DNA of 64,000 nt, taken from Strongyloides papillosus (Eukaryota; Nematoda; Chromadorea; Rhabditida; Strongyloididae). Position 1 is the first letter of the stretch, and every line of letters starts with the position of its first letter. Where the stretch lies: contig SRSI01000068.1 in the NCBI GenBank assembly GCA_005656395.1, positions 868,001-932,000 on the forward strand, in the 5' to 3' direction. The notes below the pieces were generated by a model. The model did not search any database. It saw only the letters and a list, made by a program, of their open reading frames with translations, and was not told the DNA's origin. The translations under genes and the position numbers were made by a program. This document shows positions 36,882 to 41,201 of this stretch, in pieces.

Positions 36882-37856
36882 TTACCATTCTTCTGTTAGC
36901 CAATTGCATCTTGTTTGATTGTAAGTTTGGCCATATGTCTCTCCAAAATAGCTTGAATGAGCCTTCCAGTATGGTTCTGAATCCCAAAGGAAATCAAATA
37001 TATCACTCCACTTGTAGGCTTTTTTCGAACAACTAGGATCTTCTACATGTTCTAGACATATTTTGTAACTATTATTTGTTCCATTTGGATAATATACCTC
37101 TGTTCCAACATGATAATACCAATTTAGAAGATCATCCTCTCCAGTATGACAACTATTTTCTTCTGATCCTTCAGAACAAGAGGGTATTGTTGGTATGAGA
37201 TCACCTTCTACAACAACTCTATATGTGTTGGGAATTAAGTTGTTATAGTTCATAGCAAATTCATAATCTCCTGATCGAGGAGCCCCAAATGTATAGACTT
37301 TGATATTTTCTGTTGGACAAATTTTTTCATAAACACATCGATAAGAACCTATAACAGACAAACCTCCACCTAGACTATGACCAGCAAATATTACATTTTT
37401 ATATTGTCCATTTTTGTTAATTTCTTTAACTTGTTCTCCTGCTCGATTATACGTTAATGTGTCGCCTTCTGCTTGATATGAATAAACTTTACCGCTATTT
37501 AAGAAATCGTCCATTGGTAAAAGTGAGGAGACAAGTTGTGCTAGAAGCTGGCTAGTACTTGTGGTAGCTTTATGCAAAACAATTAATGTTTCATTATCAT
37601 GCTTAAATTTTAGTATGGCTGTTAAGAAATTTCCTTTTAACTCTTCACTTTTATCAAAAGAAGTATCTAACAACTCAACTGTATCTTTAAGAATATAATC
37701 TTTTCTTATACATTCTTTATAATACATGCCAGCAATGGCTTTTGAAGCTCTGCCAAGTATCTCGGCTTCTTTTGGATCATAATCAAGAGAAAATGAATAG
37801 ATAAGAAATATATTATTAGATATTAAAAAAACAAATAGTGAAACAATTATGAACAT
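36882..37856 (-). CDS. Secreted class 3 lipase
   Basis: This single-exon protein has 324 residues and an N-terminal signal peptide (hydrophobic core FIIVSLFVFLISNNIFLIYS). The alpha/beta-hydrolase nucleophile elbow is GHSLGGG, with Ser161. The other triad members are probably Asp219 (in VVEGDLIPTIPS) and His249 (in WYYHVGTEVYYP). TFGAPRSGD is typical of the fungal-lipase-like Lipase_3 family, which is expanded in nematodes. Cysteines in the C-terminal third suggest disulfides, as expected for an exported enzyme that hydrolyses acylglycerols. No intron is seen. Confidence 0.93.
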   Translation of the reverse strand: MFIIVSLFVFLISNNIFLIYSFSLDYDPKEAEILGRASKAIAGMYYKECIRKDYILKDTVELLDTSFDKSEELKGNFLTAILKFKHDNETLIVLHKATTSTSQLLAQLVSSLLPMDDFLNSGKVYSYQAEGDTLTYNRAGEQVKEINKNGQYKNVIFAGHSLGGGLSVIGSYRCVYEKICPTENIKVYTFGAPRSGDYEFAMNYNNLIPNTYRVVVEGDLIPTIPSCSEGSEENSCHTGEDDLLNWYYHVGTEVYYPNGTNNSYKICLEHVEDPSCSKKAYKWSDIFDFLWDSEPYWKAHSSYFGETYGQTYNQTRCNWLTEEW

Positions 37857-37952: not shown

Positions 37953-38888
37953 TTACTTTTTCTTACCCAAAAACTTTAGAAATCGACCAGTTACTGATTG
38001 ATTATTTGATGATTGTGTATTTCCTCTAGAATTATTAGAAGAAACTTGTTCTTTACTTCCAACACTCATTCCTGCAGTTGGTCTGGGATTGATAGTAGGA
38101 GCAAATGGTGTAAAAATTGAGTTACATCTAAGCCAATTGTTGCAGATGTTGGTAGCCTCCTCGTCAGATACCAGTGAAACCAAATCACTTTTAAAGTGAG
38201 ACATTATGTCATCACTATTGAAAGAAAAATTTTTATTCTTGAAACGTAATGTACTTGCTGGTGCAATATCAACATCAATTAAATCTTTTGTTGTACTTCT
38301 CTCAATGACTGAAGTAATGACAAGTGAAAGATCGAATTTTGACTGTGGATTTTTTAGTAATGAATGAAACTCGTCATAAACAACTTTAGATTTTTCCTTT
38401 GACAAAAAACACAGCTGAAGAACATAATCTGAGTTCAATTCAAAACGCACCACACAATGTGCATAGGCATTCATTTTTAGTTGTTTATTTTTACCATGAA
38501 CATATGATTTGAAGACAAACGCTCTATTTGCGTCCTTATTTGCAGCCTCCGTTAAATCATGTTGTAATCGTTTAGCATCTTGAGGGGTCATTTCGAAATC
38601 CTCCTCACTCGCATCAATGGTTGGTGGGGGAATGTGACATTTTTTAAATATGACGGGTTTTCGTTCACAGATACCTTTATCATCAGACTGTCCATTTTTT
38701 TGTGAAGAAGAAGAATTATTTCTGGATTCCTTTTGAGAAACTACATCCAAACGAATTCTTCCACCATCGTCAATAATGTTATCAACTAAGGTATCTTGGT
38801 TTCCTGAAGCTAGAGAAGCATCAACAGTGTTGAGTAATGAGTTTAGTCTTTCTAAACGAGATGAACTTTTAGGGGGAATATTTGACAT
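37953..38888 (-). CDS. TUG/ASPSCR1 C-terminal half (UBX part), separate gene
   Basis: This single-exon frame has 311 residues from the ATG at 38888. An acceptor-like ccatttgcag ends 10 nt upstream, suggesting trans-splicing. The first 90 residues are polar. From about residue 95, EEDFEMTPQDAKRLQHDL matches the segment before the UBX domain of TUG (EFFELTVDDV in the human protein). It is followed by a UBX-like fold containing CVVRFELNSDYVLQLCFLS and NPQSKFDLSLVITS. The C-terminus is Ser/Asn-rich and ends KFLGKKK. It contains no TUG ubiquitin-like domain; that part is encoded by the next gene upstream (39270-40087). UBX domains bind p97/VCP. The two halves are discussed in the findings. Confidence 0.78.
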   Translation of the reverse strand: MSNIPPKSSSRLERLNSLLNTVDASLASGNQDTLVDNIIDDGGRIRLDVVSQKESRNNSSSSQKNGQSDDKGICERKPVIFKKCHIPPPTIDASEEDFEMTPQDAKRLQHDLTEAANKDANRAFVFKSYVHGKNKQLKMNAYAHCVVRFELNSDYVLQLCFLSKEKSKVVYDEFHSLLKNPQSKFDLSLVITSVIERSTTKDLIDVDIAPASTLRFKNKNFSFNSDDIMSHFKSDLVSLVSDEEATNICNNWLRCNSIFTPFAPTINPRPTAGMSVGSKEQVSSNNSRGNTQSSNNQSVTGRFLKFLGKKK

Positions 38889-39269
38889 ATGAGAATAACT
38901 GCAAATGGAACGCAATGTTCTTAAAATAGTTATTATGATAGTGTCACCATCCCAATATTTTTCGTCCCATCACATTACATTTTTTCAACATTCAATGGAT
39001 GGTTTTAGTATTTTTTTTTCAAATGAAAAATTAAATATTTCATGCTTTCCAAAAGTTTTTCCATTGTATAAAATTGATTCGGTTGATTGATTTGTTTAAA
39101 ATTTATATACATATATTTATTTATTTTAAAATAAAGTAGATTACACCGAGAATAAAAGGATAAAAAATGTATTGAAAAATATTAGCGGGTATAAAATAGT
39201 TAGTCATAGTTAATTTCATCAATATAATATAAATAGAAAAACTTTAAATATACGAGAAAATCATAAACT
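38889..39269 (-). other. Spacer between the two TUG halves
   Basis: This 381-bp AT-rich spacer is on the minus-strand transcript path. AATAAATAAA (tttatttatt on the plus strand, near 39116-39125) would serve as poly(A) signal for the upstream half. The spacer ends with a trans-splice-like acceptor before the downstream half. Confidence 0.55.
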
Positions 39270-40087
39270 TTATTTATCGTTGTTTTCCTCTTGATTTGAC
39301 TCTTCATTTTGTTCTTCTTTGTGTTTTAATTCCTCAAGATATTCTTTTTTTAGCCTTTCAAGTTCCATTTCTCTTTCTCTATTTTTAATTTCGTAAAATT
39401 CTTTTCTTTTTTCACTTTCTTGTTCCATCTGGAGTTTTAACAATTCTCGTTCCTCATTCTCTTTCTTCTTGATAAGGAACGTCTCTTCCATTTTTTTTCT
39501 CCTTTTCTTTTCATCTTCTAGTCGTTTTTCAAGTTCAATCTGTTCCTGTTCACTTAGTACTTTGAAATCATACTTAATTAATGTACGACCACTTATTATA
39601 CCAACAGACTTCAATGTTTTTATTTTTAATTCTTCAGTGCCAACAAAACTTTTATTCATTACCATCACAATAGGACATTTCTCTCTAGATGTTAAATCAA
39701 CTCCAAATTTCTCTAATACCTCGAGAAGTGTTAATCCATTCGACAAAACTTTTTGATCTCTTGAACCGGAAGGACTTTGTAAGGCAATTGTACACTGAAC
39801 ATTATCAGATAAAGGTTCAGAATATAGTAAATTCAATGTTGCACCATTGCTAAGGCCAGATAAACGAAAAGGTAATGATAAATCAAGTATTTTCTTTTGG
39901 TACATCAATTTGTAACTTTCAGGATTTAATCCTTGTTTTAAACATGCTTCTTCCAAAACCTAAGCATTTAACATAACGATTTTTTTTTTATAAAATTACA
40001 TCAACAAACCTCTTGTAGAATTTTACTTGGCGTAACTTTTACAACAGTCCTATGTGCAGTAGGTGATAAAACAACTAGTGAAGACAT
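39270..40087 (-). CDS. aspscr1: TUG/ASPSCR1 N-terminal half (ubiquitin-like domains)
   Basis: Two exons, 40010..40087 and 39270..39959, join in phase 0 and encode 255 residues. Residues 1-80 are a TUG-UBL1 domain: RTVVKVTPSKILQEVLEEAC followed by ESYKLMYQKKILDLSLPFRL. A second ubiquitin-like region follows (VQCTIALQSPSGSRDQ to about residue 155). The C-terminal 100 residues are a Glu/Lys-rich single helix or coiled coil ending EENNDK, then a stop. TUG tethers vesicles and works with p97/VCP. Here the UBX part is missing and lies in the next gene downstream. No good splice donor is visible near the end of this frame that could join the two. Confidence 0.88.
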
Positions 40088-40714
40088 CGCTCTAAATATC
40101 TTACTGATAAAAAGGTTTTTCCTTCTTTTCTATTTAAATGGTGTTTTGTCAAAAAATGAACACTCTAGCAATTTTTTCGTTGCAGGATTACTAATTCATC
40201 ATCAATGTTCAAAATTGGAAAACGGTGTTTTCATTTAATATGTATTTATTTACAAATTGAAATTATGAGGAACTTATTTGAGAATATAGGTGTAAATTTT
40301 AATGTGAACTCCTGAGAAAGAATAATTTTTTACCAGAATCAATTGTTATTTCCTATCCATAGTTTGAACGAAAAATAGAAATTCGATTTTTCGTTACAAC
40401 AAAATCGTTTATACATTTACAATTTCGTTGTTACACAATCTTCTAAAGCATCTTACTGCTAAGATAACCATTTACCAAGAATGACTATAACAAAAGGTAA
40501 ACCCTAATGATTGATGAATTTTGCATTGTCCGCGAACTTTGTATTGTTAGCTGCATAAGTCATTAAAGGAAAGAGCGGAAAACTATAAGTCTTCAGGCAA
40601 TTTACTTTTGCATAAATTGCGTGTCCTTGCTTTCTTGTAAATCATATTAAAAAGTGGTACGTGGTTTCAAAATCAACGTAACTATTATTTGTTTCCCGGT
40701 TTTTTGCTTGAACA
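40088..40714. other. Divergent promoter region, no gene seen
   Basis: 627-bp spacer between the TUG N-terminal gene (minus) and a small plus-strand gene. It is AT-rich with no recognisable RNA gene. Confidence 0.55.
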
Positions 40715-41201
40715 ATGACTTCAACGCATAAATCTATGACTATACTTACTGTTGAAGATAAAATTATTTTATCTAAAATAAGAAAGAAGCGACAACAATT
40801 AATAAGAGGAACTTTGATCCTGTTTTCTGATATATTTCGTTTTCGAGAGTCAATAAAGGAGATTGATGAATACCACTACAGTTTAATTAACATGAACGAT
40901 GTAGACAATGGAAATTATTTTGACTACAATAAAATAGAAATGGCTTCTAAGGTGGGTTTTGGATTTGGTTTTTTTTATGTTATGTATAATATATATTTAG
41001 GAGTGTAAGGAATACAATGTGTCAATTTATAAACGTATCTCTGAAAAGCGGAATCAAATAAATAAGGAGCTTCGGGAGTACAATGAGTTTTGCAAATTGC
41101 TTAAGCTACAGTCTAGCTTTAACTCATTGGCAACAGTTGAATTTGTCAAGAAAGTTTTGAAAAAAGCGGATTGTATTGTAGGAAATGTTTTCTATTTCTA
41201 A
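40715..41201 (+). CDS. Orphan 145-residue helical protein
   Basis: Two exons, 40715..40951 and 41001..41201, join in phase 0 across a 49-nt intron. The product is basic and rich in Lys, Ile, Glu and Tyr, with two likely long helices (around LSKIRKKRQQLIRG and YKRISEKRNQINKELREYNE). It has no signal peptide or transmembrane segment. The helical pattern suggests a small coiled-coil subunit of a larger complex. I do not recognise the family. The in-frame join and consistent residue composition on both sides of the intron are the evidence for the gene. Confidence 0.62.

What the first reader, a model, noticed from the sequence alone, without database searches (positions are those of the whole stretch)
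37953..40087. TUG/ASPSCR1 appears split into two consecutive genes
The gene at 39270-40087 carries the TUG ubiquitin-like domains and ends in a stop after a charged helix. The next gene on the same strand (37953-38888) carries the pre-UBX segment and a UBX-like domain. In other animals these parts lie in one protein. The order and strand are those of the ancestral gene, the spacer is 381 bp with a poly(A) signal, and a trans-splice-like acceptor precedes the second ATG. I see no good donor at the end of the first half. This suggests a gene fission kept together, possibly as a two-gene operon. Mammalian TUG is cut by proteolysis between its N- and C-terminal parts, so a genetic split is notable.
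Basis: partly seen in the sequence, partly recalled or inferred. Interest (0 to 1): 0.75.

Follow-up and report, generated by a model that had tools for sequence, protein, structure and literature searches.

The report
TUG gene split in Strongyloides worms
In parasitic worms of the genus Strongyloides, a protein that the other animals compared here make as one piece (TUG, a regulator of vesicle traffic and of the p97 ATPase) is encoded by two neighbouring genes, while a worm of a related genus still appears to have it as one.

Summary
Confirmed, and placed in evolution. The window matches Strongyloides papillosus: the spliced upstream protein is identical over 255 aa to that species' UniRef entry. 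The upstream gene (40087-39270, minus strand, one 50-bp intron) encodes the tandem ubiquitin-like half of TUG/ASPSCR1. The downstream gene (38888-37953) encodes the lariat + UBX-like half. Each has one match in the genome.

Separate proteins with nearly the same end and start exist in S. ratti and S. stercoralis, with a C-half in S. venezuelensis. Parastrongyloides trichosuri (same family), Toxocara, Ancylostoma and a wallaby have one collinear protein. So this is a gene fission, most simply on the stem of Strongyloides. The break falls in a low-confidence, probably disordered linker.

Splicing that keeps the whole N-half and joins both frames would need a very poor donor; better donors exist further upstream but would cut out the conserved helix. 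RNA is needed to close this. An operon is plausible but untested; the 381-bp spacing is ordinary here. The split does not copy mammalian TUG proteolysis: that site lies about 105 residues upstream and its Gly-Gly is absent in Strongyloides.

The parts
40010..40087 (-). TUG-N gene, exon 1 (26 codons)
   Evidence: spliced protein identical to S. papillosus UniRef entry P0004
39960..40009 (-). 50-bp GT-AG intron of TUG-N
39270..39959 (-). TUG-N gene, exon 2: rest of UBL1, UBL2, long charged helix, TAA stop
   Evidence: helix 163-248 and tandem ubiquitin folds in the model of the P. trichosuri relative
38889..39269 (-). 381-bp spacer at the fission point: overlapping AATAAA at 39125 and 39121; acceptor-like AGs at 38921 and 38900
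   Evidence: corresponds to a low-confidence linker, residues 249-264, of the P. trichosuri model
39299..39300 (-). the one GT in the last 150 nt before the stop that is frame-compatible with the acceptors at 38921 and 38900; a very weak donor
37953..38888 (-). TUG-C gene: short conserved helix, beta0 strand, two lariat helices, UBX-like domain, basic C-terminus
   Evidence: fold inferred from the orthologous part of P. trichosuri

Best explanation
An ancestral single TUG (ASPSCR1/UBXD9) gene was split into two adjacent protein-coding genes on the lineage leading to Strongyloides. The upstream gene makes a free tandem ubiquitin-like protein with a long charged helix. The downstream gene makes a free protein with the lariat helices, a UBX-like domain and the basic C-terminus. 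Shown here: two open frames with conserved ends, one match of each in the genome, orthology of both to a one-piece protein in the same family of worms, and a break inside a low-confidence (probably disordered) linker. Inferred: that the two are translated separately in vivo; that the downstream mRNA gets its 5' end by spliced-leader addition just upstream of its ATG or from a short promoter in the spacer; and that the C-half acts alone like plant PUX1, or finds the N-half through the helices on either side of the break.
Against: No RNA or protein data were examined. Eight of 33 GTs in exon 2 are frame-compatible with the acceptors; two upstream ones (39609, top 3.6%; 39573, top 7%) are decent donors, so a fused isoform without the long helix is not excluded by sequence. 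The P. trichosuri protein is a database gene model and could be a false merge. Only S. papillosus DNA was seen; for the other species the split rests on database proteins, and no output states that their two genes are adjacent. The direct AF2 model of the Strongyloides C-half failed (pLDDT 34), so its fold is inferred from the 58% identical P. trichosuri part. By sequence, that P. trichosuri part matches UBXD1 in the PDB (E 0.032) and not TUG at E<=0.1.
Confidence: 0.86

Rival explanations
1. It is still one gene, at least in part of the transcripts: a long intron joins the two frames, and the separate database entries are gene-prediction errors or one of two isoforms.
For: Donor 39300 with acceptor 38921 or 38900 is frame-compatible (381 or 402 bp; whole N-half nearly kept). 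Donors 39609 and 39573 score in the top 3.6% and 7% of GTs, and acceptor 38921 in the top 5% of AGs; they would give fused proteins of 457-476 aa without the long helix. The split in other species rests on gene models.
Against: Donor 39300 is very poor: 82% of all GTs score as high, while 16 of 25 model donors score in the top 15% (one of the 25 scores worse than 39300). Donors 39609 and 39573 would delete a helix that is conserved in the one-piece nematode proteins. Stop and start positions are conserved between species about 25% divergent.
Confidence: 0.08
2. The split is older than Strongyloides: the P. trichosuri one-piece protein is an artefact of merging two neighbouring genes, so the fission happened earlier in Strongyloididae.
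For: Merged models of operonic genes are a known annotation error (PMC7986045, passages seen). P0010 is a database model.
Against: The P. trichosuri C-part has no start codon before its conserved first helix; its length (561) is close to the one-piece proteins of other nematodes aligned (565-606).
Confidence: 0.12
3. The two genes form a two-gene operon, with the C-half mRNA released by spliced-leader trans-splicing at 38921 or 38900 (compatible with the fission itself).
For: Same strand, 381 bp apart, poly(A) signal 145 bp after the stop, acceptor-like AGs 10 and 31 nt before the ATG. S. ratti has operons resolved with SL1-like leaders (PMC1657053, passages seen).
Against: 381 bp is ordinary here: rank 10 of 21 same-strand gaps between ORFs of 100 aa or more. 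AGs of this quality near an ATG are expected fairly often by chance (own estimate, not simulated).
Confidence: 0.4
4. The downstream protein is not a TUG C-half but an unrelated neighbour.
For: No Pfam UBX hit; unrelated names in databases.
Against: 58% identity to the C-half of P. trichosuri TUG (E 5e-119), 30% to the one-piece P0012 (5e-34), and 3 of 3 PDB sequence matches are TUG.
Confidence: 0.01

Closest known systems
TUG / ASPSCR1 / ASPL / UBXD9 (animals, Dictyostelium, fungi)
   Same: The parts in the same order: UBL1, UBL2, middle region, lariat, UBX-like domain, basic C-terminus.
   Different: Two genes and two proteins. No Pfam UBX hit, no Pro-Pro in the beta3/beta4 loop, no Gly-Gly at the mammalian cleavage point. 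The Pro-Pro loss is shared by the one-piece nematode TUGs of the alignment, so it is not a result of the split.
Arabidopsis PUX1
   Same: Natural stand-alone C-half of the family, without UBL1/UBL2; it disassembles p97 hexamers (PMC8495200, passages seen).
   Different: In PUX1 the N-half is absent; in Strongyloides it is kept next door as its own gene.
Proteolytic TUG products (TUGUL and the 42-kDa C-terminal product) in mammals
   Same: N-terminal ubiquitin-like part and UBX part become separate proteins.
   Different: The mammalian cut is at Gly164-Ser165 (mouse numbering), at the start of a strand of UBL2 (PMC9556833, passages); the genetic break is about 105 residues further on, after the long helix.
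Nematode operons resolved by SL1-like leaders (S. ratti)
   Same: Two close genes on one strand, acceptor-like sites before the second ATG.
   Different: Co-transcription and leader use not shown here.

Membership tests
TUG/ASPSCR1 (UBXD9) | N-terminal TUG-UBL1 domain | tested here: met
   PF11470 61.2 bits in exon 2 alone, cut-off 23.3; PDB 2al3 TUG
TUG/ASPSCR1 (UBXD9) | Second ubiquitin-like domain (UBL2/LHU) | tested here: met
   Alignment through residue 160; tandem-ubiquitin (linear di-ubiquitin, ISG15) Foldseek matches for the model of the 62% identical P. trichosuri part; not modelled for S. papillosus itself
TUG/ASPSCR1 (UBXD9) | Extended UBX: beta0 + two lariat helices + UBX fold | tested here: met
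TUG/ASPSCR1 (UBXD9) | Both halves in one polypeptide (true of the aligned relatives outside Strongyloides, not of PUX1) | tested here: not met
   Stop at 39270, separate ATG at 38888; fused isoforms by splicing not excluded. Filed as a split ortholog, not as a standard member
UBX domain (Pfam PF00789) | Score above the curated cut-off | tested here: not met
   No UBX hit at E<=1 for four Strongyloides C-halves or P. trichosuri; Ancylostoma 15.0 bits, below the cut-off of 21. UBX is claimed as a fold only
p97-disassembling UBX proteins (ASPL, PUX1, Dictyostelium UBXD9) | Double-Pro touch-turn loop that contacts the p97 N domain | tested here: not met
   IT, VN or LN in place of PP in 8 of 8 rows other than the wallaby (two of them T. 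canis, one of unnamed source); PP in the wallaby; p97 binding is therefore not claimed
p97-disassembling UBX proteins (ASPL, PUX1, Dictyostelium UBXD9) | Binding to and disassembly of p97 hexamers | not testable with these tools
   needs biochemistry
TUGUL-type processed precursor | Gly-Gly before the scissile bond in UBL2 | tested here: not met
   SG in S. papillosus, ND in S. ratti, S. stercoralis and P. trichosuri; GG only in the wallaby and in P0012
Nematode operon | Polycistronic pre-mRNA and spliced leader on the downstream gene | not testable with these tools
   no RNA reads available; spacing is ordinary for this window

The most novel reading that the evidence does not exclude
TUG was permanently cut in two by loss of a cis-splice, the former linker region becoming an intercistronic spacer with spliced-leader addition to the second half. 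Strongyloides therefore lives with a TUG that can no longer tether vesicles as one chain: its N- and C-halves either reassemble through the helices flanking the break or have taken separate jobs, giving a natural separation-of-function experiment for TUG.
Probability: 0.3. Interest if true: 0.65.

Novelty: new variant of a known kind. Interest (0 to 1): 0.5.

Why it matters
[quoted passage not shown] its extended UBX region takes p97 hexamers apart (PMC8495200). A genus of parasites that keeps both halves, but apparently as separate proteins, suggests that the one-chain arrangement is not needed for at least some of the conserved job, and gives a natural test of which tasks need physical linkage. 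It also places a gene fission between two related genera, so the route of fission (intron or linker to spliced-leader spacer) could be reconstructed. In practical terms, the C-halves returned here for S. ratti, S. stercoralis and S. venezuelensis are unnamed or misnamed in the database.

Tried and rejected
Structure prediction of the Strongyloides C-half with a 6-row alignment failed (mean pLDDT 34.1); the order of its elements looked UBX-like but is not used as evidence.

Profile comparison of four Strongyloides C-halves with nine mammal and fungal-type TUGs gave only probability 57% (E 1.1e-4) over 93 columns: compatible but weak. P. trichosuri TUG against PDB sequences hit TUG UBL1 (E 1e-8), a redesigned ubiquitin, and for the C-part only UBXD1 (E 0.032), not TUG UBX. 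One-piece nematode proteins are the stronger link.

Proteolytic-site equivalence was tested and rejected. Operon by short spacing was tested and not supported (rank 10 of 21 gaps; the gene calls were ORFs of 100 aa or more, so gaps include introns and missed genes).

Rate change after fission: Tajima relative-rate tests, 18 comparisons (3 Strongyloides x 3 outgroups x 2 halves). N-half: no acceleration (p 0.07-0.52, direction slower). C-half: hints of faster change with Toxocara and the 595-aa outgroup (p 0.01-0.15), none with Ancylostoma (p 0.32-1.0); uncorrected for multiple tests; inconclusive.

Splice-site models rest on 24 introns inferred in CCT and kinesin genes plus the TUG-N intron. 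My first reading that only one GT in exon 2 is frame-compatible was wrong; one search found 8 of 33. This moved the one-gene rival from 0.06 to 0.08 and the best explanation from 0.88 to 0.86.

Print: no title among the rows listed reports this split, in searches at (20 of 90 rows seen; 2 of 2; 16 of 16; 20 of 155; 6 of 6; 15 of 184; 15 of 40); open-licence PubMed Central only, so this is no proof of absence. Papers: PMC9556833, PMC8495200, PMC1657053 and PMC7986045 were seen as passages; PMC12218103 gave one passage, in its reference list; the others as search listings.

Foldseek's top rows are di-ubiquitin and ISG15 chains that match the N-terminal half; ASPL appears at ranks 37, 45 and 48. 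Folds not listed are not thereby excluded.

Full report
Observation. On the minus strand the first gene runs from ATG 40087 to TAA 39270 with a 50-bp intron after codon 26; the second runs from ATG 38888 to TAA 37953 without an intron. The spliced first protein is identical over 255 residues to a UniRef entry of Strongyloides papillosus, so the window is taken to be that species. The genome held is 58.2 Mb in 79 contigs, and each half has a single match in it.

What the parts are. The first protein has the TUG-UBL1 Pfam domain and its best PDB match is the TUG UBL1 structure. The second has no Pfam hit, but the three PDB sequences that match it at E<=1 are all TUG UBX constructs, at weak E-values of 0.012-0.031. 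The decisive evidence came from relatives. Searches with each half found separate proteins of 251 and 310 aa in S. ratti, 251 and 321 aa in S. stercoralis, and a C-half of 310 aa in S. venezuelensis. A search with the ubiquitin-like part, in which only proteins of roughly one-piece length could be candidates, returned 38 proteins, many of them fungal or unnamed. The best is a 561-aa protein of Parastrongyloides trichosuri, a member of the same family Strongyloididae. It aligns with both S. papillosus halves in order: N-half 156 of 253 and C-half 176 of 299 identical residues; C-half by BLASTP 178/308, E 5e-119. Toxocara canis (two entries), Ancylostoma, Mesorhabditis (two entries), a 595-aa protein of unnamed source, and marsupials also have one-piece proteins. 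I aligned 9 rows in detail and 21 of 44 returned proteins in the structure alignment. Riehl et al. describe C. elegans TUG (UBXD9) with the same domain organisation in one protein (PMC8495200, passages).

Polarity and age. One-piece is therefore taken as the ancestral state and the two-gene state as derived. The simplest placement is the stem of Strongyloides, after its separation from Parastrongyloides. The weak point is that the P. trichosuri protein is a database gene model. Against a false merge: it has no methionine between residue 250 and the conserved helix SARLDRLNSLL, so its C-part would have no start codon there if it were a separate gene.

Is it really two genes? Exon 2 holds 33 GTs before its stop. 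Eight are frame-compatible with the acceptor-like AGs at 38921 and 38900. Only one of the eight, 39300, would keep nearly the whole N-half (245 residues; intron 381 or 402 bp, protein 567 or 560 aa). It scores -0.33; 82% of all GTs in the window score as high or higher, against 8.8 for the TUG-N donor and the top 15% for 16 of the 25 donors in the model. Two upstream donors are decent: 39609 (top 3.6%) and 39573 (top 7%). Joined to 38921 (top 5% of AGs) or 38900 they would give fused proteins of 457-476 aa without the long helix, which is conserved in the one-piece nematode proteins. The N-half ends within four residues of the same place in three species and the C-half MSN start is shared, with an upstream extension in S. 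stercoralis. A one-gene reading is thus unlikely, and a minor helix-less fused isoform is not excluded; RNA is needed.

Operon? Order, strand, poly(A) signals 145 bp after the stop, and acceptor-like AGs 10 and 31 nt before the second ATG fit an operon. S. ratti resolves operons with SL1-like leaders (PMC1657053, passages). But 381 bp is rank 10 of 21 same-strand gaps between ORFs of 100 aa or more in this window. I give about 0.4 to co-transcription.

Mechanism. [quoted passage not shown] insulin-stimulated cleavage at Gly164-Ser165 separates them (PMC9556833, passages). The Strongyloides break is not that cut: the equivalent residue is 150, some 105 residues earlier, and the Gly-Gly is SG in S. 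papillosus and ND in S. ratti, S. stercoralis and P. trichosuri; of the rows aligned, only the wallaby and P0012 have GG. For the C-half there is precedent for working alone: plant PUX1 lacks the N-half, and C-terminal constructs of human and Dictyostelium proteins disassemble p97 (PMC8495200, passages). But the Pro-Pro of the p97-contacting loop is absent in 8 of 8 rows other than the wallaby, split or not, so p97 binding should be tested, not assumed. The identity between S. papillosus and S. ratti (N 187/252, C 226/301) suggests that both halves are still useful. Relative-rate tests were inconclusive. My best guess is two separately translated proteins whose interaction, if any, goes through the long charged helix of the N-half and the short helix at the head of the C-half; that last step is inference only.

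Novelty. Gene fission and TUG are both known kinds. A conserved fission of TUG with both halves kept side by side was not seen in the rows listed by my paper searches (open-licence PubMed Central only). I rate it a new variant of a known kind.

Noticed in passing
36882-37856 (-): A lipase-like ORF with a signal-peptide-like start (named by eye, not by a search) begins 96 bp after the stop of the TUG C-half on the same strand, so three genes lie tightly head to tail.
   Followed up: no
40712-41201 (+): Two short ORFs, perhaps exons of a small protein, lie head to head with the TUG N-half; they may share a promoter region (by eye).
   Followed up: no
P0010-P0014 and Strongyloides C-halves, UBX beta3/beta4 loop: The nematode or nematode-like TUGs aligned lack the Pro-Pro touch-turn that contacts p97 in human and plant proteins, whether split or not.
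   Followed up: partly
P0001, P0002, P0003: Database names of the Strongyloides C-halves are misleading (Ras-associating, hypothetical, DHHA2); none says TUG.
   Followed up: yes
P0003 and P0006 (S. stercoralis): Both halves are listed from assembled contigs (14 and 17) whose longest is 3293 bases in both cases; possibly the same contig carries both frames. The contigs could not be fetched with the tools at hand.
   Followed up: no
window 39573 and 39609 (-): Two decent donor-like GTs inside the TUG N-half are frame-compatible with the C-half acceptors and would give a fused TUG without the long helix; worth checking in RNA data.
   Followed up: partly
P0015 (Mesorhabditis spiculigera, 902 aa, labelled partial): A TUG that continues into further sequence with Pfam PF21021, its end UBX-like by eye: either a real fusion or a merged gene model.
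   Followed up: no
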